DNA of 64,000 nt from positions 1,932,126 through 1,996,125 of the forward strand of contig NW_006763294.1 in assembly GCF_000218685.1 (NCBI RefSeq), given 5' to 3'. This DNA comes from Serpula lacrymans var. lacrymans S7.9. Taxonomy: Eukaryota > Basidiomycota > Agaricomycetes > Boletales > Serpulaceae. Position 1 is the stretch's first letter. Every line of letters begins with the position of its first letter. This document shows, one piece after another, positions 16,750 to 60,165 of the stretch. The translations under genes and the position numbers were made by a program. The notes under the pieces are model-generated. The model saw only the letters and a program-made list of their open reading frames with translations. It searched no databases and was not told where the DNA came from.

Positions 16750-17039
16750 GGTTATGTGTAGGATTGAAGGCTCCGCTTTGTCAGCGCTTTAAGGTGTACA
16801 GGAGGATCTGATTATTTGGTTACCATTCCGACGCAGCAACCTGGCATGTCAATGATATTACTATGACGGCCGATATAGCGCTGATACAAAGTCAGAGTCT
16901 ATCGAGCCTCAAGATGAGTGTATCAATAATGTCAGTAGTCGGAGCAAGGGATCAAAACGATTTTGATTTTGTATATAATTACTTCGCAGTGATCAATAAC
17001 CACTTTGATAGCCTATGAGCTGTCATTCTTATTACTAGT

Positions 17040-17363
17040 CACCGCGGGCATGGAAGGATAACTAACAGACAAGCCGGTAGGCCTATAGGGTGGTGATTCA
17101 TGCACAAACTACGGTGGATGATTGGTTACGGCTCAACTTTCGAGCCCGGCCAATGTCCGGCATAATATTTTTCAAAATCCGATGTACCTTCAGCTATTAT
17201 ATTTGTATTTAGCAAAATTCGAGCAAGGCCTTTGATGGGCGATCAACGAAAATACATTTTAATTAATTTCTTTGATCCAGCGAGTGTGATTTGGGCAAAA
17301 GCCAGTGTGATGAGAGATCGAGCGAGCGTGCAATTCAACATGTCAACATAGGATTTCAAGCGA
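17040..17363 (+). repeat. Left terminal inverted repeat of the 7.9 kb transposon
   Basis: This stretch is the reverse complement of 24167-24937 once the 459 base insertion in the right copy is removed. Similarity runs from the outer CACC to the inner boundary TTCAAGCG, with a few substitutions and one short rearrangement near 17077-17090. The kinase stop codon lies only 37 bases beyond its inner end. Confidence 0.9.
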
Positions 17364-17399
17364 TACAGTAAGTACATGTCATGTAAAAAAAAATCCCTC

Positions 17400-20227
17400 T
17401 CAGCCACGAACACGACTGGACATGATGTCAATCTCTTGTGATGTTCTCATCTTTGTAGCCGAACTCTGTGAAAAAAGAGGTGACATGAGATGTAGTAGAA
17501 AGGATCCATCAGAAAAAGAAAACATACTGCTGTCTGCAAGGAAGGGAGTCCGAAATATACACAATACTGGTTGCATTTGTGCAACAAGGGGAAGTTGTCT
17601 AACGTCGCCGTCCAGTTTCCTTCGCCAAAATTATCGGCAAAGTCTCTGGGAAAGGATGAGAACCAACCACATGGAGGTAATAGAGCCTTACTTGGTAGTG
17701 ATAACCTGGCAGTCAGTCAATATTCCACCGGACCCTGACAAGTCAAATGTAAGTACGAAAAGGAAAGCAAAAGAGACTAGCTTATATTAACTTACCTTGA
17801 AAATCTGAGATGAACACAAGGCCTTGCGAGAAATGATATTGAGTGTGTTGTGCGAAGCATAGGAAGGTTGCAATCTCCAGTTCAGGCGGAGCAAGTTTGT
17901 GCCGAGGAGCTGCACTATTGTTATTGATATACTTCACGAAGTTACCGTTTATCTTCTCCTCGAGAAGATAAACGGCATTACGCAACTCTCTGCTGTCTTG
18001 GGGGATGGCCAAAGCGGCGTGGACGACTCGAAGTCGGGGGATTGCCGGGGGAGGACAGTCAAGGGGCCTTCGAATAAGCTTGTCGTCGACGAAGTTATAA
18101 ACTAAAGCCAACAGGCTTGTTGCCCAGTAAAGGCAGTTAGCCTCGTCGAGCATCTTCATTAGCTCATCCTTGATGGCCAGTCGTTTGCGCCCGCCTGAAG
18201 GACTTGATGGTGTACCACTCTTTTCGGCTCCCTGTACTGTTTCTCTGTAAAAGCAACGTTTTGCTACTATAGCCTCTACCTGTAGAATATTTTCCTCTGC
18301 TGGCAGAGCTTCAGTTAGATCATATGACGCTGGGTGGCATGTCTTGAAGCTACCGGCTGGCCCCAGCATTGCTTTTGAGCTGCAGTCAACTGTTAAAGTG
18401 ACTAGAGGGCAATTGACCTTGCTCATGACATCGAAAGGGACCCGCTTCTTTAGAAGCTCAGTGAATGGGATCGAAGGGACGAGGAACAGGACATAGATTC
18501 CTATGTCCGTATTTACTTCACTAGCACGTTAATAGATGTTTTAGATAGAAATATAGGTTGACTTACATATCGGCTTTGCTAGGCGTCGAACATCTCCTTG
18601 TGCCTTCATGACACGCTCAAGAACTGCCTTGTCAGGCATGCTGAATGGCGGGATATTGGGATTAGTAGCAGCCTTGGAGAAAAGTCTTGAGGGCAGTGAT
18701 TGGCTGCTAGAGCTTGAGGGAGTGAGGGGGCGTAGTTCAGACGTCTTGATGGAGTGTTTGCTGTGGAATAGGCTTGACATTGATGCTGTGCTGCGTGTAT
18801 TGTTACTACGACTGTCATATTCACCCTACATGTGGTAAGTATCGTCTCCAATAATGTGAGGGCCATTGGCATACCTCCTCTGACACTGGTGCTTTTGAAC
18901 GCACAGATACCGACTCACGTGCGGGGATGGAAGATTGGCCTGGCGCCTTTCGCACACGAGTCTTTCTAGCTCGTTTCCCACCACGTGTTGCTGCAAGGAA
19001 TATCTAGTAAGGCCAGTTGCTGTAAGTATAGCGCAGTAAAAGTAAGTAAAATGTATAACCTTGTCCATCGGACCACCAATATCATCATCGTCTGACGATA
19101 TTCCGGGGCTCTGAACCTCTTCATTGCGTGAGCGTGCTTTGGCATGCCTATCTTCTTCCTTCCATAGCAAGACATCTTCAAATTCCTCCTTTGACACCAA
19201 GAGAATGATGGGAACTTTCACGTTTGGTGAAAACTTGGGCGTGTTGTCCTTTGCTGATGTGCGGAAGAAAAAATCGTGAAGGACCAGCCGCTCAGAGTAT
19301 TGATGAGGCTCTTCGGGGTCGTAAATGAGGAGTAATGGAGCCTTCAGCATCTGTAAAGACTCGAGTGCCAGCTGATGGTCACAAGACCAGACCACCCACA
19401 AACGCTTCAGGTGTTCAATCACTATGTTGCGTAGTTGGCCACATTTAATAGAGAGCGGTACTGTAATGTCTCGTTCAATATTCTCAAATAATAGTACATG
19501 TGAGTATCCTTGAAATATTGAAGTACCCAAAGACTCACCCCAACCAGCTCTGTTCCAGATTTTCCTTCGTCCTTCACATGATGGAGAGCTATCCGGATTG
19601 TGACTTGACGTTGAGGAGCTACTGTTGATGCTAGCATTTTCGTGCGGTGGTGGGCGTGGAATGCATGGTTCTGAGTATATCCTATGGCTTGGGAGACGCT
19701 ATCAGCACTGACACTAGCAGACGAGGGGATAAGAGGGGGAGGCATAACGCTAGATGTAGCATGTCCCACCCCAATATGCTGCCTAGGGAATGACTGTTCT
19801 GGGATTTCATAATGTGTGTTTGGTAAGTAACTTGAACACGCACAGGTGAGCTGGAAATTTTACTCACCGCCACGTTGTGCGGCCGAAGAAGCCTTGACAA
19901 GAGCCTGGCGCGAGTCGGCATCAACACCATGTGCCCGGGAAGCCACTTTCGTGAAATCTAGATTTGATCCTTAACATATACATTGAATTACAGAAGACAA
20001 TCAGACATACCGACAATTTCACCAGATATTGCACTGGTACTATGACCATGACGTTCTCCAGTTTCCGCACGCTTGCGCTGATAATGCTCGACGCAATCTG
20101 AACAGCAGTGGCGACCGGTCCCATCCCTACCCTTGATATACAAGAACCGGACAGACTTATCAAATTCTGTACGACAACGATGACAACTTTTAGTTGGTGG
20201 GCCTTCGATAGTGGGTGTGAAGTCCAT
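17400..20227 (-). CDS. Transposon-borne zinc-finger / alpha-kinase protein
   Basis: ATG 20227 gives MDFTPTIEGPPTKSCHRCRT with a paired-cysteine motif (CHRC near residue 15, CCSDC about 25 later). A long low-complexity and central region follows. It includes VLLFENIERDITVPLSIKCG and RLVLHDFFFRTSAKD, the latter recurring in a relic at 50755-52117. The C-terminal kinase domain shows the ATP lysine in VEAIVAKRCFY, AVYLLEEKINGNFVKYINNN, VFISDFQG, LTDCQVITT, the glycine loop FGEGNWT (17612-17626 on minus) and the zinc-binding HKCNQYCVYFGL. All are marks of alpha-kinases. Exons join in frame to a TGA at 17400-17402. Its role in transposition or host signalling is unknown. The kinase looks catalytically complete. 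Confidence 0.82.
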
Positions 20228-20811
20228 GGCGGCTAATTTACTTACTGTTCTCCCCCCATTCCTGGTGTAGTTTATATGGATCCTTGAAGATGAGTTGTAG
20301 TCCGAATGGATTCGGGTCGAGTCGAGTCAAATTTGAGAACTCCTCGGCACAAAGATAACAATGAGGACTTTGCCAATCTGAGTGGCTGGCGACTCACCAA
20401 TGGGCCATCCTCGAACAACACGCGGACAAGGATCAATATGGATATGTCAAAGCTGGTGATTGCAAATTGACATGAGGAGATGGGAGATCTTCGCGGAGAT
20501 AATGTCAGTGAAAACAAATGAGGAAGAGGCAGGCACCGGTTAAATGAATTGCGTGCAAACACGATCTGATTAGCCTTACGGTTTTGTCTGAAGTGCGTAT
20601 CCAAGTGTCTATTGAGCGGATCTTCCATATCCTTTCTGCCCATAGGATCACTTGAAGAACTGACTCCACTGCTTACACTGAACAGGCTGTGGATCAAATA
20701 GGAAGTGTACTATTGGACTGTGCATCCTATAGGTGAGTGTTCAAATTGCAGTGCCCCACGTGCATCAGCCAAGTGCTAACACTATCCAGGACTGTCAACG
20801 CCCTGCAGGCC
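20228..20811. promoter_or_regulatory. Divergent promoter region between the kinase and integrase genes of the transposon
   Basis: About 580 bases separate the two start codons. Open frames here are short and unconvincing. It most likely drives both genes. No clear TATA box was identified. Confidence 0.4.
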
Positions 20812-22581
20812 ATGCCTAACCCTCAAGGTACCAATGGGTATAAGGTATCCCCTGGTAGGCTTGCATAAACGACACTCCAAGGGTGTAATGCTCACTTTCT
20901 GTCCTTTTCTCACAGCTCCAGACATTTTAATCCGACCATTGGTGGAACAATTCGTCGCAGATGGATACACAAATCCAGAAATTGTCACTAAACTCAAGGA
21001 CTACTATGACACGGACCGCTACTCATTTTCGTAAGCCTTCTAGCTGTAATACTACAATACACTGACACATTTGATTAACTATAGTCTCGCTTTACTGAAG
21101 AAAAAACGGATGGTTTGGGGCTTGAAGAGTGCTCGGGGCCAGGCACACTCAGTTGATAGTGTGGGGCCTACCATTGAACGTGTTCGTGAGCGGTTCCCTC
21201 ACCAGGGGTCACACGATATGAGAGTGACTTTGCGACAAGAGGAAAGGGTGATGGTGCCTCGGTAAGTTGTTTCACTTTTCACACAGTGGCAGTCACAAGG
21301 ACGTTAGTATACTAGGCAGGTAATACTAGACTACATGAATCTACACCATCCAGACGAAGTAAAAGGACGTCGAAAACGCCGGCTGAAGCGTAGTTATTTC
21401 TGGACAGCAGGTGTCAATGAACTGTGGTGTTTTGACCAGCATGATAAGTGGAGACGCTTTCAGCTTTTTTTTCACGTTGGACTCGAGCCCTTCTCCGGCT
21501 ATGTACTCTGGCTCAAAGTCTGGTGGACTAACCATAATCCGCGTCTGATATGTGGATGGTATTGTGATGTCGTGGAGAGATTGGGTGGTGAGTCTCTTTC
21601 TCCGGTGTTTCAACTGCTTGGCTGCCAATTGCTGACTTATACTAGGGATGCCTCTAATCACACAAAGTGACCCCGGCACTGAAAACAATGGTATCGCAAA
21701 CGGCCATACATTACTTCGTCATATGCAAGACCCGGCTTTAGACAAGACCCTGCAACATACGTTCAAAGGATCTCACCGGAACATTAAGCCTGAGATCTTT
21801 TGGGGCCAATTTCGAAGACGTTGGGCGCCGGGATTTGAGGCTCTCCTTGACTGGGGGGTCAACGAGGGCCTTTATGATGCTGACGATGCTCTTCAACGGT
21901 TGCGTATATCCATTTACCTAAGCAAAGCGGCCACAACTGACACAAACCTGTAGACTAGTCTTCCACTATGTATTTATCCCCTGGATACAACAAGAACTCA
22001 ACTGCTTCATTGAGAGGTTCAACGGTTCAAAGCCCCGACGAAACTCACACAAGTTACTACCTCATGGACGCCCTGTAGATATCTTCAAGAACCCGGAGCT
22101 TTTTGAGTCACGCGATTTTGCTGTAAGTTCATAGTATCATTTCCACTTTGTCATATACTTATAATACATACATCTACAGGTTAAGGTGCATCCGCCGTAT
22201 CTAACAGAAGTGCGAGACAAGTATGCACCACCCGATCACCCTGTTTTTCATCTGGTCCCGCCGGCCTTTTCGTTACAGGCACGCACATTCTGGGATGCTG
22301 CCAACTACCCTCAAGTTGGCCGAGAAAACATATGGGACATCTATTTACACTTACTCCAGCAGTTCCGAGATCAGCCAAACAACATGGAGTTGCGTACTGT
22401 GATGGCCCTTTCAGTGAACTCTAATGAGGAGGATGAGTCCGAATTCATGCCAGTCATGGAGCTTCCACCCCACCGGCAACGGAGGCGCGTTGTAGGAGAT
22501 GCACCACAGAACACCGGGGGCTACTCATCTGACGAAGCTGATACAGATTTTGAGTATGAGTGGACAGACGACTCGGATTAG
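20812..22581 (+). CDS. Integrase-like DDE transposase of the 7.9 kb transposon
   Basis: ATG 20812 (MPNPQ) is spliced to APDILIRPLVEQFVADGYTN. A helix-turn-helix-like stretch follows (YTNPEIVTKLKDYY, then SLALLKKKRMVWGL), and RERFPHQGSHDMRVTLRQ precedes the catalytic core. The triad is visible: Asp in LWCFDQHDKW (21434-21436), Asp in ITQSDPGTENNG (21669-21671) and Glu in ELNCFIERFNGS (22012-22014). Exons join through introns near 21031, 21261, 21590, 21906 and 22123 with no break. The acidic C-terminal tail ends at the TAG at 22579-22581. This is the integrase-core family seen in mushroom and fish genomes. It is the likely transposase. Confidence 0.87.
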
Positions 22582-23229
22582 CTTAGGCCTTTTAGTATGT
22601 GTTCTGGTCTTTCTTGTTTTCTTGAAATGCACTTTGGATATCAAATCATTGTATTGTACATAGAATAGCTAAATACAACAATGAATGTTTCTATGGAATC
22701 ATGCTTTGGGCCCGAGAACTTGAGTTCTGGAATGCACAACTGTGCAGATGCTGTAAGGAGCAACTCACACCGAGTTTATTTGTAATTTAATATGGGAATT
22801 GTACCTTCCAGTCTCTTTGAGATCTCCTTGATCTTCCAAGCATGTGAGTACAATGGGATTCCATTGTGCGTCGGCGGAGACCATTGTTTTGGCTTTGCGT
22901 TGAATCATTTGGTTAGTGCGGGCTAATATGAGACATATGACCACAAGAAAGAGCTGGAACTGACTGTGCATTACTGTATTGGCGTGAGCATGTGGTTGAC
23001 GCGAAGCTCTTCAAGAATGTGTCGCCAGAATTGCATGAAAAGATTTACAGTGCTGTCTGAACAGCTGATTATTCCGAGATCGTGAAGTACACACGTGATG
23101 TTGATTTGTTGGACCTTAGCTATTGTTCTCACGCATGAAAATTCTGCAACTCTGTCAGACTGCCGTGTTTGTAGATCTCAATAATTGTCAACTATGGGCT
23201 GTAAGTCTATGCTGCCTCAAGCAAACAGC
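22582..23229. other. Spacer inside the transposon
   Basis: Non-coding 650 bases between the integrase and the third gene. Only a short antisense frame is present and it resembles nothing. It should hold the integrase 3' UTR and the next promoter. Confidence 0.4.
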
Positions 23230-23237
23230 TATAAAAG
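23230..23237 (+). promoter_or_regulatory. TATA box of the viroplasmin-like gene
   Basis: The octamer TATAAAAG stands 66 bases before ATG 23296, with a pyrimidine-rich stretch between. This is a usual TATA placement for a fungal gene with a short leader. Confidence 0.6.
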
Positions 23238-23295
23238 GTACGGGTGAGTTCACAATTATCATCCAGACATACTTACCTCCTCCTTCCAAATTGCA

Positions 23296-24109
23296 ATGAC
23301 TCAATCTCCTCCCCCTGGTCGTTCAAACTCTTCCAAGCAGCCTGAACGCTCCGTGAGTGAAGATTGCCTCAGCGACGAGGAAGAAACTATGAGTAAGGCC
23401 TTCTCATGTTTCTGATTATTGCACTAACTTACGTGTACCTCCAGACATCCTCCTTTCTCTCCTCTCATCCGTAACCTTGAGTAGGAGCAACGCTATGCTC
23501 ATGATGTCCGCTGTTCTTGGCAGTGCCCGCCCTTCAACTCCATCAAGTCCCATATACACCAGCTCTTCCCCATCTTCCTCAATAGTTCAAGGGTCGCTTG
23601 CCGCCAGCTCTACTGTGGTATCTGGTCCTTCAGCTGCTGCTTCTTCACGCACTCCTGCTTTGGGTGCCGCCGCTTCTCCGCTTACTCCTGCTTTGGGTGC
23701 CAGTGCTTATGCGACAGTTTCTCCGATCACCACCAGCTCTCCTCTTTTCACCACAGCACTTGGCTCACTCGCTACCCCTGCCGCTCCACCTGGAGGTAAT
23801 GTGCCAAATGTCTCACAGGCTATCACTCGCACATACCTCGGCCAGGTTTATGAGGTTCCTGATGCTGGGACAGCTGGTCCCTTCTATTTGGTCACCAGAG
23901 GACGTAGAATTGGTATCTTTGCTGCGTGGTAAGTGACCTTTGACTCGTCGACTTCGAAACTGTCTCATCTCTATTTTCTCAGGCAGTCTACCTCTCCTCT
24001 CGTTATCGCTGTCAGCCGCGCCGTTTTTACTCGCTGTCCTTCTATTTCCGCCGGTATCACAGCCATGCAGAACACAATCGAAGCGGGTGAGGTGGAGATC
24101 TTACCTTGA
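23296..24109 (+). CDS. Viroplasmin / RNase H1 N-terminal-like protein of the transposon
   Basis: Three exons. The N-terminus MTQSPPPGRSNSSKQPERSV is acidic to polar. A long Ser/Ala/Pro/Thr-rich linker follows, with a repeated TPALGA unit. The C-terminus has FYLVTRGRRIGIFAAW, then, across an intron at 23930, QSTSPLVIAVSRAVFTRCPS and AMQNTIEAGEVEIL. This last part has the Y-x-V-x-x-G-R-x-x-G-I-x-x-W ... V ... F pattern of the caulimovirus viroplasmin / RNase H1 N-terminal domain, which binds RNA-DNA hybrids or dsRNA. The role in the element is unknown. Its stop lies 58 bases before the right TIR. Confidence 0.65.
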
Positions 24110-24166
24110 GGAGAGGGGTTGTCAGTATATGTGTAATACTTGTAATTTCTTGATGTATTTGGACGC

Positions 24167-24937
24167 TTGAAATCCTATGTTGACATATTGAATTGCACGC
24201 TCGCTCGATCTCTCATCACACTGGCTTTTGCCCAAATCACACTCGCTGGATCAAAGAAATTAATTAAAATGTATTTTCGTTGATCGCCCATCAAAGGCCT
24301 TGCTCGAATTTTGCTAAATACAAATATAATAGCTGAAGGTACATCGGATTTTGAAAAATATTATGCCGGACATTGGCCGGGCTCGAAAGTTGAACCGTAA
24401 CCAATCATCCACCGTAACAAACATCATCATTTCGTCCGTTTTGGTGGCCTGGCTGGGTCACTTGAAATATTTTTAATATATTACTTTGTGGTATATCGAC
24501 TATATTTTAACGAATTTTTTGAGTGACAGCTGAGATGGTTTATGGCCAGTTTTAGGCTGCCAGCAGCCCAGCCAATAGTCTAGTGTTTTTGCTGTATTGA
24601 CACCGAAGGGGGGCACTCTGCACGCCACCGTTATTTTGAAGCAGACCTTATTTACAAGATATCGATCGACTATCATCAATATATTGAATTAGGTCAGCAA
24701 GGGAGACTAGCCCAGCCAATACGAACCTAGTTTTCAAAAGACCAGCAGCATGTCAACCTAAAACTGGTCACAAACCATCTCAGTTATTACTCAAAACTTT
24801 TGTCACAAATTATATATTAATAATATTTCAAGTGACCCAGCCAGGCCACCAAAACGGACGAAATGATGATGTTTGTGCATGAATCACCACCCTACCGGTA
24901 AGGCTTGTCTATTTATTATCTTTCCATGCCCGTGGTG
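24167..24937 (-). repeat. Right terminal inverted repeat of the transposon, interrupted by a MITE
   Basis: Reverse complement of the left TIR at 17040-17363, but split after ...CCACCGTA by a 459 base insertion at 24418-24876. Its outer end is followed by the TAGT duplication at 24938-24941. Confidence 0.88.
24418..24876. mobile_element. MITE nested in the right TIR
   Basis: The insertion begins ACAAACATCATCATTTCGTC and ends in its reverse complement. Its inverted repeats run for over 50 bases, and a second pair of inverted segments near 24521-24560 and 24740-24800 (around AAACCATCTCAG) lies inside. It has no coding capacity. The left TIR provides the uninterrupted version of the site, so the borders are certain to a few bases. 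The exact target duplication is unclear because the repeat end overlaps target bases. Confidence 0.85.
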
Positions 24938-25012
24938 TAGTGCATACCGGAAGCATCCGAGTCTAAGTCCCAACTAGGGAATTGCTACATTTCTTACTAG
25001 TATCATACAGCC

Positions 25013-36615: not shown

Positions 36616-39600
36616 TTATAGATAAAACATCGTATCCTTCAACTTGTCGCCAGACACGCCTCCGTGCCACAGCCGTTCGGCCTCACGTCGTACCTCGTCC
36701 TCTGTCGCACTTCCACCACTGGTCGCTGTCGCGGTGCCATCGCCAAAGACTCCCTGCAGCAACTGGCGCAGGTAGCACCTCCCACGATCACATGCCATAT
36801 CGGCGTAGTATGCGGGGGAGACAAGGCTCACAGCCTTCGTTGCACGCGCAAATATATAGCTCAGGTTGTTCGTCAAGCCCTGCAGCTCATCCGCACCAAA
36901 CTTGATCTCATCATGCACTACGTAATAGTGTGTGGGTCTCGTTGTCCCCTGCAGACCACCATGTGCTAGATCCCATAAAGTTAGATATTTGCTCCACCCA
37001 GACTGCATCGAATAGGGTACATACCTTGCAAGAAGAAGTCAAATTCGTATACAGCTGTCACACCGCGATCGACCACTGTCCCAGGGCGAGGATTGCCATC
37101 TCGGTCTGCGGCACTCGGTTCGGTGGGGTAAAAGCGAGTGTGGTGACGCTTGCCGCACACGACAATGGTAAGCTTAGGTTTGTATGGCTTTTGAGGCGTG
37201 TCGAATTTACGGAAAGCTTTCTTGATCTCAGGAAGCTCATCTATGCGTACGATAGGAAATTGTCCCTGCAAATACACAGATAAGTCCCACAAAGTAACAG
37301 ATTTCTGCTTGATAGCAAACTTGCCTCTGATACACCATCACGATATACAAGAACGCGTTCAGGCAGCTTGTTGCCATTGCGCGATTTCCACAGGGTTAAT
37401 CGTTCCACCATCATTTGAGCAAGGTTCGTGATCATCTACATGGATATATGAATGAGAAAAAGCCAACAAGATGAGTGAGATGCTTGCCTCCTTCTTTGTC
37501 TCCTGTAATTCCATACTTGCTGGGTACTGCGCATAGTGGCTGTCGACACTTGCAACAACCGCTGCAATGGATGCTGTTGTGCACTCATCAGCCACACAAT
37601 CCATCTTGAACCACAATATACTCACGAGTCCCCTTGACACTACCTGGACCAGGGTGCGTCACATCCATCCCGACTATCATCGTAGGCGCCTCTTTGAGCC
37701 ATTTCCCACTCCTGTCGTCCAATTTGTGATTTACACCGCCCATCTTCATATTCACCTTCAAAGCAACGTTCGCGTAGTACTGCATCTGCCCCTTCTCCTT
37801 CCTAATCTTCGATGACTGCACACACACCGTCGCTACATCCAGGTAGGCATCGCACAAGTGTTTGAAACCCTCATATATAGCATGGTCGCCGCTTGACAAT
37901 ATCGCTAATACCATATTAGGCTTGGGCTTGACGCTGACCAGCGCATTTCTGATAGCAGTTATGGCCTCACGCCGCATCGTGTCTCCGCGGTTCTTCGGTG
38001 GAAGTTGAACGGCAACGAACGCAGGGTCCTGGCGATCTACGGTAATACCACTTTTCGAGCACATATCACGGAAGCCTTTGATCACATTGCGTAGCTCAGG
38101 ATCGTTCGTTCCACGAAACTCGTCGCGTCCACCGTCCTGCACCAGAAGCACCACCCAACGCTCTAGCCGTCCGCCCACGGTGAAACGCACGCTGCGCATA
38201 TTCCACGATGCCCGTTCATCTATTTGGGCAGGAGCATTGCTATAGGTGAGCCCGGGAGAAGGAAGGATTCGCCCCGGCACTACGGCCATCTCGTTACCTA
38301 TGCTGATCCCAAAGGCCCCCAAGAGGGAGGGGCCAGCAGTAAGGCGGAAACCCAGTTCGTTCAGACCGTGTGTGACTATTGCATTCGCATTCACGTTTGG
38401 CGGTTTGCAAGCCGCGGTGATCATTGCAGCCGTGTGCTCTTCCGTTAGTTTTCCTCGGTAGGGCTGATCTGGGAGTATCTCGCAGACTTCGGGGGGAAGG
38501 TAATTCTTGTTTTTCCCACCCACGTCAACTAATGGTAACTCTGGACGTCTCAATCTGATGCTGTATTCTGTCAATAAAAGTCCATGTCAACAAGCAGATC
38601 ATAACACTTAGAGTAGACGACAGGTGACTTACTGGCTAGGAAATACTGTTCAACTGTAACTTGTCCGCCCAGCTCTTCGCAGGGAAAACGATATTGTTTT
38701 GCATTCTGACGAGAGAGAGCCTTGACTGTCTTACGATAACCTAGGTGTGTGGTCTTCACCCTTAAATGTCTGACGAACGCGCTCGGATTAGCACTGAAGC
38801 TCGCCTCACGAAACGCTATCAATGCATCCGCTAAGTTACCAGGAGTGTAAAATGCAGTAGTGCAGACGTTGACGTTGACCATCAATTGTTTGTGCGCTGG
38901 GCGCACTGAGGAATAGAATCCTTTCCATGCTTCGAGCCCGCCTCCAAGGGGTACGGGCGGTGCCGCAGCACGAAAGAAGTAACGATTACGGCCTACGACT
39001 ACGCCACCACGTTGAGGGTGTGCAGCGAGAATGACATTGAGGGCTGCGATAACAGGAAGAATGTCGTATCCTTTATACTGCGGTTGTCCTGCGAGATAAC
39101 TAGAATCAATAGTTTTAGCCTTGAGATCATGGGAAGAGCCAACGTTGGGCTTACTTTAATAAACTTCTAGTCTCTATTTCTTGTATGAATTTTATAGTGA
39201 GTGTATACTCCTTTCCTCCTGTCTCAGGGGGTCCACTTTCGTCTTCATCATAATAAGGCACCCTAATGGCAAGTGGCTGAGGTAGTGAATTTGCTGCAAT
39301 TAATTTTGCGCTATTGTCGTGAGCAACGGTGCCTCGCATGCCTGCAGATGCCCAATCTGGGGTCTGTTCTGCGAGCTGGAAGATGCGGCGCTTGACACGG
39401 CGGGCAGCTGTACCTGCCGCTGGTGCAATACTAACATCATATTCGAAGAGAGGGCCCTTTGGGACACGAACTGGGAAGAAATTGCTTCTCAGTTTGACCT
39501 GTGTGCCCACAGTGCCGAAGCCAGGACGAAGAGGGAGGTCTGTAGGACCGTCCCCAACGGAGAGTTGCTTGAAGGAGGCCACCAGGGCGTCGTCTGACTT

Positions 39601-39997
39601 GTCTGCGATGCGTTGATCGATATTGGCGGGCACGTTCTGTGCAAAGACACTGGTGATGATGGTGGTCAGTGTCAGAGATGAGTGGTGGCGTCGTCGGAGT
39701 CACTTACCCGCCATACTCTCTCGGCCCACCCCGCCCTCTGTCCTGGAAGCCACCACGACCACCTGGGGGAGGACCACCACGACCAGAAGGAGGTCCACCA
39801 CGACCAGAAGGAGGTCCACCACGACCAGAAGGAGGTCCACCACGACCAGAAGGAGGTCCACCACGACCAGAAGGAGGTCCACCACGATCAGGAGGTCCAC
39901 CACGACCCCCTCTGTCCCCGGGGCCACCTCGTCCTCGCCCACCACGTCCTCCGTCGAACCCACCACCCCTGCCTCTGTTGTCGCCTCTGTAACTCAT
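36616..39997 (-). CDS. Argonaute (RNA-silencing slicer)
   Basis: The start MSYRGDNRGRGGGFD is followed by an RGG/SGRGGPP tandem stretch. Then come the N domain (GFGTVGTQVKLRSNFFPVRV), linker 1 (YDILPVIAALNVILAAHPQR, RNRYFFRAA), PAZ-like residues (YRFPCEELGGQVTVEQYFLA), linker 2 (LRRPELPLVDVG, NYLPPEVCEI), MID (FAVQLPPKNRG) and PIWI. The catalytic tetrad is in place: Asp in VGMDVTHPGPGS, Glu near MELQETKKE, Asp in VYRDGVSE, and His in PTHYYVVHDEIKFG. The end (VSLVSPAYYADMACDRGRCY, DTMFYL) is typical. The TAA is at 36616-36618. It should bind small RNA and cut complementary transcripts, relevant to the adjacent retroelement-rich region. Confidence 0.93.
39773..39890 (-). repeat. 21 base tandem repeat coding SGRGGPP in Argonaute
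   Basis: About five and a half near-perfect copies of a 21 base unit (plus strand GACCAGAAGGAGGTCCACCA) encode five SGRGGPP units in the Arg/Gly-rich N-terminus. The near identity points to recent slippage, so the copy number is probably variable between strains. Confidence 0.9.
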
Positions 39998-43792: not shown

Positions 43793-46700
43793 TTACCCCC
43801 TCCTTAAGACTTTCGTCTCGGAAGTGAGGGTCAAGTTTCCCAGATTCCCAGTTAAATAGTTGTTTTTGTACTCTTGTCGTAGTAAAATTTTCAAAAGGTT
43901 GGAATTGTAATTGAAATTGTATCCATCGAGGTGCACTAGGGTTTTTATTGTGGAATATTTTCACCTTTTTTGGTGAATTGGATAGGTGTTGTTCAGGTTC
44001 CCATGTGTGTTCCTCTTTTGGGTAGTTTTTCCAATGAACTAGGTATTCTAGTTTTTGTTACAATTAACATACCAGAACCTACTTACGCTTCACTTTTTGT
44101 ACTTTACTTTTCATTTTTCCAAGTCATATAACCAGTCATGTGACCATTTACTTTACTTTTCATTTTCGGACCTTTCCTTTAAATTTCATTCTCCGCTTTA
44201 ACCTTGTACTGTAGTTTTCACACTGTGCCATGTGGCACTTCCCCTTGTAGTTCAAACTCCACCTTTCTTGCGTGGTGCCACCTTTATTCTTATTTTAGAT
44301 ACAAGTATCTCATGCAGTGGAGCTGGTCACACGGGCTAGGCCCCATGACATCAGCAGCCACTGCCTCTAGCAACTGTACAGTACATATGTACAAACAAAC
44401 CTGTATTAGTATATAAACCCCAATAGATCTTGGGGAAGGACTCAGCGAGTCCTCCTGTTGTATACCAACTAACTCTCTGCATCCTAAGGGGTAACCACTC
44501 CCTCAATCATCTTCCTTATAGTGTGTTCTGTGTGCGCCAGAGTAACTAACTCTTGGTTGTTACAGTTTTCCCTTTTTTAGACGTGAGTCTAGAACTTCCT
44601 CGACCTCATACTCTTCTTGCCCATCCACTATCACCGGTGGTATTGGTTTGGGTTGTTTCTGAGAAGGGAATTGTGGTTCTTTGTAGGGTGTGAGTTTTGT
44701 TTCATTAAAAACTGGATGAATGGATCGCTATGTCAGTGGTAGTAGTAGTTTGTAGGCTGACTCGCCTATTTTTTCAATGATCTCGAATGGTCTGTGTCTT
44801 TTATCATCCAGTTTCTTAGTTGGTCGGTCTGTTGAAATGTTCATTGCTTCTACATATACTCTGTCTCCTATTGTATATTCCACAGCATCCCTTTCCTTTT
44901 TGTCATATTGTTTCTTCATCTGTTCTGCCGCCTTTTGTAATGATTCTTCCGCTTTTTTCCTCGTGTCTGTCATTCTCTTTACGAAATCTTCCGCGCTTTC
45001 ACTTTTCACTTCCACTTTCACTACTTCCTGTGTTCTCGGATGGCGTCCTTGATTTAGGTAGAATGTGCTATATCCTGTTGCAGAGTGTTGTTTGTTGTTA
45101 TATGAGAACTTTGCTAAAGTAAGCCATTCTGCCCAATCATCTTGTTTATGATTTATGAAGATCCTGAGATACTGCTCTATCTCTTGATTGATCCTCTCTG
45201 TTTGTCCATCCGTCTGTGGGTGCCATGCCGTTGATGGATTTGCCCTTATCTGAAGAAGCGTGTGTAGATCTTTCATAAATTTAGAAACAAATTGCGGTCC
45301 CCAATCTGAAATGATCTTTTTGGGTATGCCATAGTTTCTAAATACGTGATCTCTAAATAATCGCGCTACTCCTTCTGAGGTGATCTCCATCTGAGTGGGA
45401 ATTACTTTGATCATTTTTGTGAATTGGTCTATGACTACCATTATCATGTTGTATCCGGTTGATTCTGGTAATGGTCCGATCAGATCCACTGAAATGATTT
45501 GCCATAGTTTACTCGGGATTTCGTTTGGATGGAGTGGTGCCACTTTCTTTTTGTGGTCTGTTTTAGTTCTTTGGCAGACTTCACATCCATCTACGTATCT
45601 TGTGATATCTCTGTCCATATAAGGCCACCAGTATTGTCGAGTGATCAATTCCTTTGTTTTATATCTACCTGGGTGACCTGCAATGGTAGAGTCATGGTTT
45701 CATCTGATGATTTCTTCCCTTAGCTTGGTATCTTTTGGTACGCATATCCTGCCTTTGAATACTACATAGCCCTCTTCTTCGAACTATCCATCCTCTCTTC
45801 TCTCTATCTTTCCTTTCATCCTTTTTATCAGGTCATCTACATTCCCTTTCCTTTTTAAGATCCATTTTGAAATTACTAATTCTTCCTCTTGACTATCTTT
45901 GACTGCTTGTCTTTGTTCTGATGAAAGGGTCATTTGTACGAATAGTTTCTCATCTAGTAGTACAACATCCTCATTGTCTTTTTCTCCTTTATTGTGATCT
46001 GATTGTCTTGAGAGCAGATCTGCTTTTATATGTTTTCTTCCAGGAATATGGTGTATTGTGAAATGATATTGACTCAATTCTGTCATCCATCGTGCCTGTT
46101 GTCTGTTCAACTTCCTAGGTTCTTTGAAATATAACAGATTTTGATGATCCGTCCATATTTCAAATTCTTCCTCTGCATCTATTAAGTAGTGTCTCCATTC
46201 ATTGAGTGCTGTCATGATGGCAAGAAGTTCTTTGTCATAGATCTCGTAATTGTGTTCCGTGGGATTCAACACTTTAGAGAGGTATGCAATTGGCTTCCAG
46301 TCATCTTTTTGTCTCTGTGATAAGACAGCTCCCATTGCAAAGTCACTACTATATGCTTCTACTTTATATTGGCTCTGTGGTACTGGGAGGGCTAACACAG
46401 GGGCTGAAGCTACGCATCTTTTTAAGGTGTCAAATGCTTTGTATTGTTCATTTCCCCAAATGAATTCCTCTTTTCCCGTTAACTTGGTCAATGGTTTTGC
46501 TACTTCCCCAAAGCCTTCTATAAACCTTCTGTAGAAATTTACAAAGCCCAAGAATGCTTGGATGTCTTTTTTGTTTTTACATTCTGGCCATTTGCTAATT
46601 CCTTCTACTTTCACTGGATCCATGCAAATTTCGTTTTCTGAGATGATCAATCCCAGATATTCTACTTCTGTTTGTTCAAAATCGCATTTCTCTGGTTTAA

Positions 46701-48552
46701 GTTAGAGATGGTTCTTTCTTAGGATTTCTAATACACGTTGTGTTGTTGCTCTGTGCATTTCTATATCCTTTGTGAATATCATAATATCGTCTAGATATAT
46801 GATCACGAGCCCTTTGTTTATCAATTCTCTAAGGAGTGCGTTCATCATTGTTTGGAACGTGGCGGGGGAATTTGTCAGTCCGAAGAACATGACTAATGGT
46901 TCAAATAACCCCTGATTTGTTCTGAATGCTGCTTTCGGCTCGTCTCCCTCTCTCATTCGGATATTGTTATATCCCCATCTTACATCCAGTTTTGTGAAGT
47001 ACTTTGCTCCGCTCAACTTGTCTACTAGTTCTCCAATCAGGGGAAGTGGATATCTATTTTTGATAGTGATATCATTTAACTTCCCATAGTCCTGAACTGG
47101 TCTCAGCTTTCCGTTTTTCTTCTTTATGAAAAAGAAGGGTTATGCGAATGGGGATTTGGATGGTCTTATCTGTCCCAATTCTAGATTCTCTTTTAGAAAC
47201 ACATCTAACTCTTCCTGTTCTTCTCTTGCTAATGGGTAAATCTTGCAATCTAGGGAGTGATCTCCTGGTACTAGTTTGATTGCATGATCCCATTGTCTCC
47301 TTTCTGGTAGTGCGTCAAACTCTTTTCTATCAAATACGTCTTTGTATTGATGAAGGTGTTTTGGCACTATCTTTTTTAATCTGCCTTCTTTTTGATCTTT
47401 GCCTGCAGCTTTGGCTAGTCTTTGTGCCATTGTGCCTTGGGCCCTAATGTGATAGTATTGATTGTCGATAGTGGTGTCTTCAAAATTATGGAGATTCATC
47501 TGTATCAATCTTTCCCCCATTTCAAGTTCTTCAAAGAGTGTTTCAGGATCCTCCTCTGGATCAGAGATTTGGATTTTGGGTTTGCACTCTTCAGGACATC
47601 TTTCAAAGTTTAACTTTGACTCTTTCCAGTCTATTGTTGGGTTATGTTTGTTTAACCACTCATGTCCTAAAAACATCTTTCTGTTACCGAGATTGGTTAC
47701 GGCGAGTTGAATTCTTTCAATGTGATTATCGATTTCCATGAGCAGTATCACAAATTCATTGATGGCTCCATTCTTATTAAGAGTACCATCTGCATTATAC
47801 ACTGGGATTGGTCTAGGTATCCTTCTTGTTTCATAATTTTGGTCTTTCACAAATTGAGAGTCGATGCAACTCCCCGTGCATCCACTATCTAATAGTGCTT
47901 CAACCGTCTTTGTCTTTAGAGTATCTAGTGTAGTGAGCCTACATGTCACGTTCATTTGATTGCCTTGGGTACCCCTAATGTACTTTTTAGGGGAGGCAAT
48001 TTCTATGATCGCTTGTATAGCTTCTACTTTTGGTAACCGGTTGATTTCTTTTATTGTTTCCCGGGTTACTTCTCTAGTTCTCTTTTTATGTGTCCAAGCA
48101 CTTAGAATCCCAATGGATCTTTCTTCTCTTTGGTCTCTAAGCCTGTCTACTATCCACTCTGGGGTCCAGACTTCTTTTCTTTCTAGGTTTTGTTTTGGAG
48201 GGGTTCCTGACCTCCCTTCTACAGTCTCTGCTGCATTTTTCTCTGTAGAGCTCGCCGCATCGGGTGTAGGGATCTTAGCATCTGCCATCAGTGCTGCACT
48301 TTTTAGTGATTTGCCCGCCGTCAAAACTGCGGATGTCTCGTCACTATGCGCCGCTTCTGCTGCAGTTGTGCTTTTCTTTTTTGCATCTCTTTCGTTTTTT
48401 ATTTCTTTCTTTGTCTGTGGATTTTTTGTAGTTTTATTGTCAATGCTATCTGGTAATTTACATGTTTCCACAGACAGAGGGAGAAATTGATCCGAAATGT
48501 CTTTTTGGGGTGCAGCCAGTTGATGCGGTACCGCTGGCCTCTTTAAAAACCC
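43764..48552 (-). pseudogene. Element A pol polyprotein, broken
   Basis: From the frameshift site the frame reads LKRPAVPHQ onward, with a long spacer. The protease follows (ALLDSGCTGSCIDSQF, near 47880). Reverse transcriptase shows LRPVQDYGKLNDITIKN and IIYLDDIMIFT (near 46790). RNase H shows WTDHQNLLYF. The integrase has the zinc-binding WWPYMDRDI and CEVCQRTK, then the core VDLIGPLP, SDWGPQFVSKF and QTDGQTERINQEIEQY. The chromodomain reads YLVHWKNYPKEEHTWEPEQ (near 44000). In-frame stops occur near 47142 (before PFFFIKKK), 46700, 45784 and 45690, and a solo LTR splits the chromodomain at 44056. It is not functional. Confidence 0.9.
44056..44564 (+). mobile_element. Solo LTR, family E, copy 2, inside the chromodomain of element A
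   Basis: A 509 base unit TGTTACAATTAACATACC...TTGGTTGTTACA flanked by GTTTT at 44051-44055 and 44565-44569. It is about 90 bases longer than copy 1 because of a stretch near 44070-44160. Removing it and one GTTTT rejoins the chromodomain frame of element A. Confidence 0.93.
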
Positions 48553-48553
48553 G

Positions 48554-49666
48554 CTAAAAGTTTTCTCTCTCTTCCTTTGTCATCTTTTCTAAGAATTCTC
48601 GGACATTGAATTGAGGCTTCTTTGTTTGTGCGTTTTTGCACTCAAAGCTCCTATGTCCTTTCTCTCTGCACCGGTAATATCATCCCTCAGTGCGGAATTT
48701 TGCTTTATCCACCTGCATCTTTTCTCCGCTACCTGTATAAGTGTAGCCAGTTCCATCTCTCTTCTTCTCTGTTTTTTGTTCCGAATTTTTTTCATTTGGT
48801 TTCCTTCCAAATTTGGATCCTTTCTTCTCTTTCTCACGTTCTCTCCAGATGTAGTCTATCCGGATGAGTTCTCGTTTCCATTCCTGGTAGTCTCTAGGAA
48901 TATGCCCTCCATAGGTTACCCGGTCTACCAAGGGTTTATTCATATTTTGTCTCAATAATGAGACCAGGAATTCTTCGTTCATCCTATTATTGTATCCTGC
49001 CCACCTTTTCTTTTCTTCAAACTTTTTGAAGAAGGCTTGAGCAGTTTCATTGTCCTGTCTTAGGGTCAACATTTTGTTTTTTGCAGTTTCTTTTTCAAAA
49101 TTGTCTTTAAATTTTTCTTCCATTTTGTCAGCGAAGAATGGCCAACTCCCATACGTGTGTGTGATGTCGAGCCCCAATTGTTGGGCATTGACTCTGTTCT
49201 CTAGCCAATCAGTTCGAAAGGCCGCGGCTTCCCCTTCTTTCATAAAAGATAGCACAAAGCTTATTTTTTTTCTATTGTCTTTAAAATAGGTGGTGTCATC
49301 TTCAAAATGTAAAAGTAAGGACTCTCTGAAAGCCCGGTACTTTTTCTTATCTCCTGAGAAGTTTTCTGGCTTCTCTAGTGCCGTCCTAGTTCTTTCTACC
49401 CTTTCTGGGGGTGATGTTATCTTTGTCTTTTTCAGCCTTTTTTCTAAAATGCTCACTTCTTCTAGTGCCTCGTCTAATTGGGACTGATATAGAAGGCGAG
49501 TTTCTCTGATTGCCTTCTCGACTTATTGTTTTACGTATGCCTCTAAGGAGACTTCTTTGGGCGGGGGAGTGTCTATTCTCGGTAATGAGTCCATCATTTC
49601 CCGAGTAAATGCATCGTCCATGCTGCTGGATTGCTCGGGCTGATCTCGGTATTCTAAATTGGACAT
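48554..49666 (-). pseudogene. Element A gag, broken
   Basis: ATG 49666 gives MSNLEYRDQPEQSSSMDDAF. An in-frame TAA follows VKQ near 49528. The main body reads RTRTALEKPENFSGDKKKYR, ISFVLSFMKEGEAAAFRTDW and EFLVSLLRQNMNKPLVDRVT. A second stop falls in the zinc knuckle, where element B has GLCYRCGEKGH and this copy has a stop, then YYRCREKGH, so the first cysteine is also lost. It ends with TAG at 48554-48556, two bases before the GGGTTTT motif, because of a 1 base loss relative to element B. Confidence 0.88.
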
Positions 49667-50407: not shown

Positions 50408-50686
50408 TGTTAGATCCCTACACCTTATGCCAAACTAATGGAGGTGTAAGTTTCAAAATCAAGCAAGTAGTGTCAAGTATTGATATTAAGAGGTAATCAA
50501 TAACTGAGGAAATGTAGGTACATGAGTGTTGGTATATACACGTTTCTGAAGGTCAGCCATGAGGCGCTGACTGATGTTCTACGTCATAGTCTAGGCTTTG
50601 TCAGGTGATTGTCATGTGACCAGATATAACTAACTACTTGTTTTATGTAATGAGTCATGTGATAGTAATATCACGTGATTATGGGT
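50408..50686 (-). repeat. 5' LTR of element A, truncated
   Basis: Matches the first ~240 bases of 43474-43792 closely, then a shorter, diverged block through ATCACGTGATTATG. The outer end with TGTGACA is missing. Beyond it lies unrelated sequence leading into the kinase relic, so no target duplication can be read. Confidence 0.85.
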
Positions 50687-50754
50687 CGGTTAATAGATAG
50701 AGATTGCTGCAACCTATATGCACCAATTCAGAGCATTAACAATAATGAGGCATT

Positions 50755-52117
50755 TGAAATTTACCTTGGAAATCTGACAGAAACACTAAGCCTTGGGTAA
50801 GATGGAACAGAGCATGCTGCATGAAGCAGAGAAAATTTGTGGTGTCAAGCTGAGATTGTTATAGACTGTCCCTCAGGGATGCACTGTTGTTGTTGATATA
50901 TTTGGTGAAAGGCCCTTCAATCTTTTCTTCAAGTAAACCACAGCCTGAGGATCTTGTGTATTCTGGGGAACAGCTAAGGCTGAGTGGACAAAGCAAGGCC
51001 TTTCTTGAACCCTGACTTGTCAATTCAATTGTAAAGCAGGTCCATTGGGCTTCCAGCCCAATAAAGACAGTTTGCTTCATCTATTGTCTTGAATAACTTG
51101 TCTTTGATTGCCAGACACTTCTGGTTTTTAGATGGGGTTGATGCAGATACAGATGCACTAGTGCTAGGTGGGTCCCTGAAATACAGCTGCTTTGCTACAA
51201 TGCTTTGCAAGCCCAGGATCCTGGAAGTATTGGTGGATGACAACAACCAGCTTTGCTTGAGATGGATTGACACTAGGTGACAGGTCCTAAAAGTACCTGA
51301 GGCACTGACCATTGCTTTGGAGGCTGTATCTTAGATTTTCCAGGTCAGGGACGCTGAAAGACATTTCCATGTCAGAGCATGTTTTGTAAGTATTGGCCAG
51401 GTGTGACCTCAGTCAAGTTGCTGCCGTCTGCAAGCTAGTCAATGTTGCCTTTATCAAATAATTTGGAGCTTAAGCCGCCAGGTCCACATGCATGTTGGGA
51501 CTCATCCTCAAACAAATGATAAGTCAAGGAAATACCATGGAATAGCCAGAATTACTTATCACAGAGTCAAAATTCCTACAACATTTTAAATTATTGGAGG
51601 TTTTCATATGTGCAGATGTCTTCTTCTTTGACATGGTTGCAATGCAGAAAACCTACAAAAAAACAGCCCAATTAGGAACAAGTAGATGAAAGTTCAACAA
51701 ACTGACTGACTCTTTCCATGGGATCTTCATATACTGACACAGACATGGCTACTACTTCTTCATCAGGATTATGGGACTCCTTCTAGGAGAGTATATTTTC
51801 AAGAACATCATTTGACATGATAAGCAAGATCAACACTTTGACACTAGGATTGAACTTGGGCAGAGAATCCTTTTTTAAGGCTTGAAAGAAGAAGTCATGG
51901 AGAATCATGCATACAGCATTGGTTTGAGATAAGCAAGGGTCATACAAGAGGAACTTGGGTGCCTTGTGCATCTCCAATGATTCCAGGGAAAGATGGTAGT
52001 TGTGGGACCACTCACTCCACAGGAGCTTCAGGTTTTCAATAGCTAGTAAACAAAGTTGGCTGCATATTATAACGAGGGGGACACTAATGTCATATTCAAT
52101 ATTCTGTTGAAACATGC
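50755..52117 (-). pseudogene. Decayed alpha-kinase gene related to the transposon-borne kinase
   Basis: Fragments in three frames match the gene at 17400-20227 in the same order. Near 52080, IEYDISVPLVIICSQL matches IERDITVPLSIKCGQL. Then ILHDFFFQALKKDSLPKFNP matches LHDFFFRTSAKDNTPKFSP. Near 51190, IVAKQLYFRD matches IVAKRCFYRE, and AIKDKLFKTIDEANCLYWA matches AIKDELMKMLDEANCLYWA. Near 50930, LLEEKIEGPFTKYINNNSAS matches LLEEKINGNFVKYINNNSAA. Frameshifts and stops are many, and the glycine loop end is not found. No TIR was found around it. Confidence 0.85.
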
Positions 52118-59807: not shown

Positions 59808-60165
59808 GGAAAAGACCTGCACGCGGTTATTCGCTGGGTATCACTGAGACAACCGTCTGGACCTCAGTTACTATACTTTAGAACACCGATATATCAAGAT
59901 AGAATTAGTTACGTACATAGTCAGTGCGGGACAGAAGAGGAACCGCTTGACTAAAGAAGGAAACAGATAGACCGGTTGATCTTACATTAGAAAGTGTTGA
60001 TCCGACTTATCATCGGGAAACTCTTTTGTATGCAACCTGGGAAATTCGAAGAGTGGCTAGCAGAAGAACACTTTCACTCCGAGAACAGATTAGCTTGGGA
60101 AATTTACTTCACATTCCCAGAAATAGAACCAATCAGAACTCGATACCACACCCCCTACCCAGACC

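What the first reader, a model, noticed from the sequence alone, without database searches (positions are those of the whole stretch)
17040..24937. A complete cut-and-paste transposon that carries its own alpha-kinase and a viroplasmin-like protein
Seen: ~320 base TIRs with CACC...GGTG ends, TAGT duplications at 17036 and 24938, and three gene models without breaks, including a full D-D-E triad and an alpha-kinase with its ATP lysine, glycine loop and zinc-binding tail. Known: integrase-type DNA transposons with 4 base duplications exist (Ginger), and mushroom genomes hold many alpha-kinases. Inference: the kinase and the RNase H1-N-like gene are standing cargo or helpers of a transposon family, a link I do not know to be described.
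Basis: partly seen in the sequence, partly recalled or inferred. Interest (0 to 1): 0.9.

Follow-up and report, generated by a model that had tools for sequence, protein, structure and literature searches.

The report
Fungal transposon carrying its own kinase
A recently mobile jumping gene in a wood-rotting fungus carries, besides its cutting enzyme, a protein kinase and a third small protein, and most of the kinases of this type found in that genome sit in such elements.

Summary
The thing is real, but its borders were misread. The window is from the dry-rot fungus Serpula lacrymans S7.9. The transposon is 17110-24416: 7,307 bp, 253-bp inverted repeats TACGG..CCGTA, 6-bp duplication ACAAAC. 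It sits inside an older 585-bp CACC..GGTG element, which owns the TAGT duplications. The genome holds ten two-ended copies; nine have matching 6-bp duplications and five are identical over 7,307 bp. Three genes read through without a break: a D-D-E transposase, a divergent alpha-kinase, an RNase-H1-N-like protein. They are standing parts: of 19 diverged transposase loci, 14 have the kinase head-to-head and 7 the third gene downstream. Kinase and transposase diverge in parallel (r=0.81 over 17 elements) and both show purifying selection. 17 of 23 alpha-kinase domain hits in the genome lie in such elements. Termini, duplication length and gene order fit the IS3EU superfamily, not Ginger. The kinase-IS3EU link is already in print in one passage (Kojima 2025, TET-carrying IS3EU). 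In ten searches of one open library I found nothing on the third gene in IS3EU or on kinase-transposase co-evolution. Helper function (regulation, anti-silencing) is inferred, not shown.

The parts
17036..17039 (.). TAGT duplication of the outer element, left (right copy 24938-24941)
17040..17109 (+). left arm of the older outer MITE-like element (CACC...), cut by the transposon
17104..17109 (.). 6-bp target site duplication ACAAAC of the transposon, left copy
17110..17362 (+). left terminal inverted repeat, 253 bp, TACGGTGG...
   Evidence: 99% complementary to 24164-24416; boundary from copies elsewhere
17447..20227 (-). KIN: alpha-kinase gene, 779 aa, 9 exons (20011-20227, 19868-19957, 19539-19798, 19060-19482, 18875-19003, 18567-18825, 17796-18515, 17692-17734, 17447-17645)
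   Evidence: model; Pfam PF02816 63.8 bits; fold of a relative
20228..20811 (.). 584-bp spacer between the divergently transcribed KIN and INT start codons; candidate shared promoter
   Evidence: from models; promoter role inferred
20812..22581 (+). INT: D-D-E transposase (IS3EU-type integrase), 467 aa, 7 exons (20812-20827, 20916-21030, 21085-21261, 21316-21587, 21646-21898, 21954-22122, 22180-22581)
   Evidence: model; Pfam PF24764 47.8 bits; 98% identical to P0001; fold of P0001
23296..24109 (+). VIR: RNase H1 N-terminal (Cauli_VI/viroplasmin)-like gene, 235 aa, 3 exons (23296-23391, 23444-23928, 23983-24109)
   Evidence: model; Cauli_VI 17.8 bits, under the cut-off of 21; relatives in other elements
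24164..24416 (-). right terminal inverted repeat, 253 bp, ...CCACCGTA
24417..24422 (.). 6-bp target site duplication ACAAAC, right copy
24417..24937 (+). remainder of the outer MITE-like element (...GGTG); its far arm keeps the uninterrupted target site

Best explanation
17110-24416 is an autonomous, recently active cut-and-paste DNA transposon of the IS3EU superfamily in Serpula lacrymans. A D-D-E transposase (INT) acts on the 253-bp inverted repeats and inserts the element with a 6-bp duplication. The family carries two more genes of its own: an alpha-kinase (KIN) transcribed away from INT across a 584-bp spacer, and an RNase-H1-N-like protein (VIR) downstream of INT. Shown: the borders, the duplications, the copies, the repeated gene order, the shared history and the selection on KIN. 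Inferred (I give this part about 0.45): KIN phosphorylates the transposase or host silencing/repair proteins and so licenses or times transposition; VIR binds RNA-DNA hybrids or dsRNA and shields the element from RNA-based silencing. Not shown: expression, excision, kinase activity. The confidence below is for the identity and the standing three-gene design.
For: Ten two-ended copies with the same TIR; 9 of 10 have matching 6-bp duplications of different sequence. Seven of the ten are free of N; five are identical over 7,307 bp and the window copy differs from them by 13 substitutions, none a stop. Pre-insertion site preserved in the other arm of the outer element. Diverged families repeat the design: of 19 INT loci 14 have KIN within 20 kb, 14 of 14 head-to-head, and 7 have VIR, 7 of 7 downstream on the same strand; 0.36 KIN and 0.23 VIR loci expected there by chance. 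Diverged elements with TAYGG ends and 5-6 of 6 duplication bases: C1, C3, C4, C15; C13 with mutated ends. KIN/INT distance correlation r=0.81 over 17 elements, 0 of 10,000 permutations; within Serpula r=0.84 over 10. dN/dS: KIN 0.145 and 0.182, INT 0.131 and 0.105. 8 of 18 KIN relatives share species and exact contig length with an INT relative. Termini, 6-bp duplication and divergent kinase match published fungal IS3EU.
Against: No transposase tree against named IS3EU members was possible. 5 of 19 diverged INT loci show no KIN within 20 kb: four rest on short hits, but C1:5457479-5458686 covers much of INT. VIR was missed at 12 of 19; two of these twelve, C13 and C15, showed it on closer search, weakly (E 2e-4 and 0.023). 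Four other PF24764 integrase loci have no kinase near, so not every such integrase brings one. Of the 8 coding differences between the window copy and the five identical ones 6 change an amino acid, so selection is seen only over the long run. L009 has unmatched flanks. Three two-ended copies and the single-ended one hold long runs of N, so their middle is unread. L016 differs by 3 substitutions and 4 one-base gaps within 60 bases of INT. VIR's domain call is under Pfam's cut-off. Gene models were set by eye and use two unusual donors (GTTGCG, GTTATA). No expression or activity data.
Confidence: 0.83

Rival explanations
1. KIN and VIR are captured host genes, passive cargo of one successful copy with no role for the transposon.
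For: Transposons do capture genes; TET/JBP genes are said to move passively between fungal transposon superfamilies. No role of a kinase in D-D-E chemistry is known to me. 6 of 8 recent coding differences change an amino acid.
Against: Same genes, order and orientation in many diverged elements; parallel divergence of KIN and INT, r=0.81, also within Serpula alone; purifying selection on KIN over the long run; 17 of 23 alpha-kinase hits in the genome are in the elements.
Confidence: 0.07
2. It is a Ginger-type transposon of 7.9 kb, CACC..GGTG ends, TAGT duplication, as first read.
For: Ends and TAGT duplications exist at the stated places; INT has a retroviral-integrase-like core.
Against: The nine other two-ended copies stop at the equivalents of 17110 and 24416; 6-bp duplications; no Cys in the first 140 residues, hence no HHCC finger; 4 bp is given for Ginger1 and 4-5 bp for Ginger2.
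Confidence: 0.02
3. The kinase is chiefly a benefit or burden to the host that keeps the element (for instance an addiction or recognition trait), not a transposition helper. This rival shares the identity of the element with the best explanation and differs only in the kinase's role.
For: Not excluded: conservation and selection fit any function that favours the element's survival. 6 of 23 alpha-kinase hits lie outside recognised elements.
Against: Two INT-less KIN loci read (L031, L032) have VIR relatives beside KIN and look like decayed elements; no host-fixed orthologue was sought.
Confidence: 0.15

Closest known systems
TET-carrying IS3EU families of Pucciniales and Tuber indicum (Kojima 2025, PMC12730594; passages and section 4.1 seen)
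   Same: 6-bp duplications, TIRs over 30 bp, TAYGG..CCRTA ends, transposase and alpha-kinase genes in opposite orientations.
   Different: Those carry a TET/JBP gene between transposase and kinase; here only a 584-bp spacer is there. The paper's main text has no hit for viroplasmin or RNase H. In the passages seen, its Agaricomycotina part names Kyakuja, Zisupton, EnSpm, Plavaka and Helitron2, not IS3EU.
Styx of Zymoseptoria (PMC10853768, passages)
   Same: Fungal multi-gene element of about 7.9 kb, four reading frames, transposase likened to IS3EU, 6-bp duplications, recent bursts.
   Different: Besides the transposase it has two genes with GATA and CCHC motifs and one with DUF3577; no kinase is named within the element in the passages seen.
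'Intons' (V. Kapitonov, in a 2012 meeting report, PMC3520738, one passage)
   Same: Fungal transposons derived from IS3EU with several conserved proteins; the report suggests that proteins acquired by transposons regulate transposition.
   Different: Five to six conserved proteins, not named there; here three.
Ginger1/Ginger2 and GingerRoot (PMC10045372, passages)
   Same: Integrase-like D-D-E transposases; GingerRoot is treated together with IS3EU and makes 6-bp duplications.
   Different: Ginger1/2 make 4-5 bp duplications. 'Kinase' has 0 hits in that paper.
Helitron HELPO1.3 gene capE of Pleurotus (PMC4289320, passages)
   Same: A viroplasmin-domain (PF01693) gene carried by a fungal transposon.
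   Different: A Helitron; described there as a captured gene.

Membership tests
IS3EU superfamily | target site duplication usually 6 bp | tested here: met
   9 of 10 two-ended copies; 6/6 in C3, C4, C15 and 5/6 in C1, 5/6 in C13
IS3EU superfamily | TA..TA termini (fungal: TAYGG..CCRTA), TIR over 30 bp | tested here: met
   TACGG..CCGTA, 253-bp TIR; definitions
[quoted passage not shown]
IS3EU superfamily | transposase branches with known IS3EU transposases in a tree | not tested
   no named IS3EU protein set was at hand
TET-carrying fungal IS3EU | alpha-kinase gene opposite in orientation to the transposase | tested here: met
   14 of 14 diverged pairs head-to-head; feature as published
TET-carrying fungal IS3EU | TET/JBP gene between transposase and kinase | tested here: not met
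   only 584 bp lie between the two start codons
Ginger1/Ginger2 | 4-5 bp duplication | tested here: not met
   6 bp; Ginger values
Intons (2012 report) | five to six conserved proteins | tested here: not met
   three genes modelled in the element; report
alpha-kinase family | alpha-kinase domain with ATP lysine, D.QG and LTD motifs and zinc-binding tail | tested here: met
   Pfam 63.8 bits; DFQG, LTD, HKCNQYC aligned to the TRP-channel kinase 1ia9; lysine kept in 17 of 17 relatives with a letter there. Which residues are catalytic is recalled
RNase H1 N-terminal / viroplasmin (Cauli_VI) | Pfam PF01693 above its cut-off | tested here: inconclusive
   E=0.004, 17.8 bits against 21

The most novel reading that the evidence does not exclude
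A kinase plus an RNA-binding-like protein form an ancient core control module of a fungal multi-gene IS3EU lineage, older than the split of rusts and mushrooms, and the reported alpha-kinase family expansions of basidiomycete genomes are mostly counts of this transposon. The kinase would be a transposon-coded licence for transposition or a counter to host silencing.
Probability: 0.4. Interest if true: 0.78.

Novelty: new variant of a known kind. Interest (0 to 1): 0.62.

Why it matters
Few eukaryotic DNA transposons are known to carry their own signalling enzyme (recalled). If the kinase controls transposition or silencing, these elements offer a direct test of how a transposon manipulates its host by phosphorylation. 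There is also a practical side: alpha-kinases are called highly expanded in rusts (PMC4469406, passages; its table row reads 79 and 39 in two columns whose heads I did not see), and here 17 of 23 domain hits in one Boletales genome are in transposons. Such expansions should be checked for transposons before they are read as host signalling.

Tried and rejected
Ginger reading: rejected on duplication length and borders.

Giant open frames of 1,900-2,600 codons in L010, L015, L017 and L018: artefacts of runs of N (5,700, 5,947, 5,758 and 7,756 N), not a new cargo. 'open_frame_aa' values over 2,000 have the same cause.

Longer elements as carriers of extra cargo: in C15 and C4 the extra 6-7 kb inside KIN are LTR retrotransposons (direct repeats of 391 and 389 bp; gag, RT, rve and chromo domains). 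C12's 3-kb gap within KIN is unexplained.

Protein database search with VIR found nothing at E<=0.001 among the 7,989 candidates scored; its Ser/Pro-rich middle may have swamped the word filter. Two annotated Serpula proteins, P0015 and P0020, turned out to fuse INT and VIR in one model. A profile search of all 123 fetched proteins found VIR in these two only; as the others are separate gene models, VIR outside Serpula remains untested.

Empty site in another strain: could not be tested. Among the 40 of 91 candidates scored there was no close uninterrupted copy of the outer element; the other arm of the same element served instead.
Full report
Where it is. The window lies in a 42.6-Mb, 29-contig genome (G000:C5:1932126-1996125). 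Contig lengths given for annotated relatives (2,744,376; 1,564,726; 3,173,450) equal C7, C12 and C4, and these proteins are named Serpula lacrymans var. lacrymans S7.9; taxonomy: Boletales, Serpulaceae. The identification is an inference from these exact matches.

Borders. A search of the genome with its left repeat shows that the repeat family starts 70 bases further in. The transposon is 17110-24416, 7,307 bp, with 253-bp inverted repeats, 99% complementary. It is flanked by ACAAAC on both sides and sits in one arm of an older 585-bp inverted-repeat element (CACC..GGTG, TAGT duplication). The other arm of that element still holds the site without insertion: the joined flanks and the other arm agree in 112 of 121 columns and are identical across the insertion point. 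The TAGT duplications are therefore not the transposon's.

Copies. One search gives ten pairs of ends, counting the window, and one single end (C6). Nine of the ten pairs have matching 6-bp flanks: ACAAAC, CGCTCA, CAAGCG, AAGGGA, TAATCT, AGATAT, CGCTCT, AATATT, TTATCA. The exception, L009, has on its right the same flank as L010 and looks recombined. Seven copies hold no N. L009, L011, L012, L013 and L014 are identical over 7,307 bp. The window copy differs from them by 13 substitutions: 5 outside the exons, 2 silent, 6 that change an amino acid (KIN 3, INT 1, VIR 2), none a stop. L016 differs from them by 3 substitutions and 4 one-base gaps, all within 60 bases of INT's last exon. L010, L015 and L017 have both ends and a long run of N between (assembly gap or withheld), as has the single-ended L018. 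Identical copies at different sites with different duplications mean very recent mobility; that the mode is cut-and-paste is inferred from the transposase class.

Are KIN and VIR standing parts? Outside the near-identical family, 19 INT loci, 20 KIN loci and 13 VIR loci were clustered from hits, whose counts are lower bounds. KIN lies within 20 kb of 14 of 19 INT loci, always head-to-head; VIR of 7 of 19, always downstream on the INT strand; by chance 0.36 KIN and 0.23 VIR loci would be expected. Distances of KIN run from 0.3 to 18.6 kb; in C15 and C4 nested retrotransposons stretch the element. Of the five INT loci without KIN four rest on short hits, while C1:5457479-5458686 covers much of INT. 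Eight diverged loci were fetched around INT, chosen because one search had shown KIN there; one search finds KIN in 8 of 8 and VIR in 6 of 8, two of the six weakly (C13 E=2e-4, C15 E=0.023). Of these eight, four have TAYGG ends with 5-6 matching duplication bases (C1 7,574 bp, C3 6,804, C4 13,997, C15 13,597); C13 has mutated ends and CTAACG/CTAATG; C12, C16 and C18 gave no convincing pair of ends. L031 and L032 show KIN and VIR without a recognisable INT.

Other fungi. INT relatives: 105 proteins, by their names nearly all Agaricomycetes with some Calocera (Dacrymycetes) and two without a name (class labels recalled). KIN relatives: 18, from the 7,994 best candidates scored. Eight of these 18 share species and exact contig length with an INT relative: Boletus edulis (48,838), Suillus subluteus (1,307,234 and 1,169,799), S. 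occidentalis (82,938), S. clintonianus (147,019), Grifola frondosa (2,125,601; tags A0H81_05042 and 05045), Trametes maxima (506,401) and Serpula (3,547,952; tags 405248 and 405247). For the other ten KIN relatives no such match was seen or it was ambiguous.

Shared history and selection. Pairwise distances of INT and KIN over 17 elements (9 read from the genome, 8 database pairs as above) correlate with r=0.81, none of 10,000 permutations reaching it. Descent within host species could give part of this; but within Serpula alone (10 elements) r=0.84, again none of 10,000. By the Nei-Gojobori method KIN has dN/dS 0.145 (697 codons, against C13) and 0.182 (667, C15); INT 0.131 and 0.105. These use ungapped blocks of at least 15 residues and 45% identity, which favours conserved parts; stops were dropped; the other pairs are saturated at silent sites, and VIR could not be measured.

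Alpha-kinases of the genome. Pfam PF02816 rings at 23 places (a lower bound). 17 lie within 20 kb of an INT-family locus or inside a TIR-bounded copy; one of these, C21:117084, is in a copy whose middle is N. 6 do not: C14:369k has a VIR remnant (L032), C5:1982804 is in this window 28 kb from INT, the other four were not looked into. Four other PF24764 integrase loci have no kinase hit closer than 59 kb.

Place among known systems. IS3EU is described with TA..TA ends, usually 6-bp duplications and no HHCC motif (PMC10045372, passages); fungal TET-carrying IS3EU with TAYGG..CCRTA, TIRs over 30 bp, and transposase and alpha-kinase in opposite orientations (PMC12730594). The element meets these except the TET gene. 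I therefore file it as IS3EU by structure, with the tree untested. The library holds open-licence papers only and no supplements were read, so 'not in print' is limited to that.

How it may work. Shown: mobile element, repeated three-gene design, long-run selection on the kinase. Inferred: a divergent promoter gives joint expression; KIN modifies INT or host factors; VIR, if it binds RNA-DNA hybrids or dsRNA like its namesakes (recalled), counters RNA-based silencing. That rust relatives keep a TET/JBP gene, read by its author as an escape from methylation-based silencing, between the same two genes fits accessory genes directed against silencing, and Kapitonov is reported to have suggested that such acquired proteins regulate transposition.

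Noticed in passing
window 50679-50966 and 51771-52106: Pieces of a second, decayed alpha-kinase gene on the minus strand (stops inside), about 28 kb from the element's transposase, with no INT within 20 kb.
   Followed up: partly
window 44728-49522 (-) and 60127-63983 (+): Two LTR-retrotransposon coding regions in opposite orientation (between them gag, RT, RNase H and integrase domains), with a 1,124-bp inverted match of 73% between 46384-47507 and 62479-63602.
   Followed up: partly
window 37588-38586 (-): A reading frame with PAZ, Argonaute linker and Piwi domains: part of an Argonaute gene, 13 kb from the transposon.
   Followed up: no
window 24574-24710: The middle of the outer MITE-like element (bases 158-294 of the query) is itself a repeat, found at 94-97% identity at nine other places without the rest.
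   Followed up: no
G000 C3:1298141, C14:428090, C3:856907, C4:466096: A different group of PF24764 integrases in the same genome without an alpha-kinase hit nearby.
   Followed up: partly
L009 and L010 (C21): Two copies 36 kb apart share the same right flank; L009's flanks do not match: recombination between copies or an assembly fault.
   Followed up: no
L016 (C5:2322952-2330258), window equivalent 22185-22244: All differences of this copy from the five identical ones, 3 substitutions and 4 one-base gaps, fall within 60 bases; local sequencing fault or real change.
   Followed up: no
window 39732-39920: Tandem array of 21-bp units in a region of raised GC.
   Followed up: no
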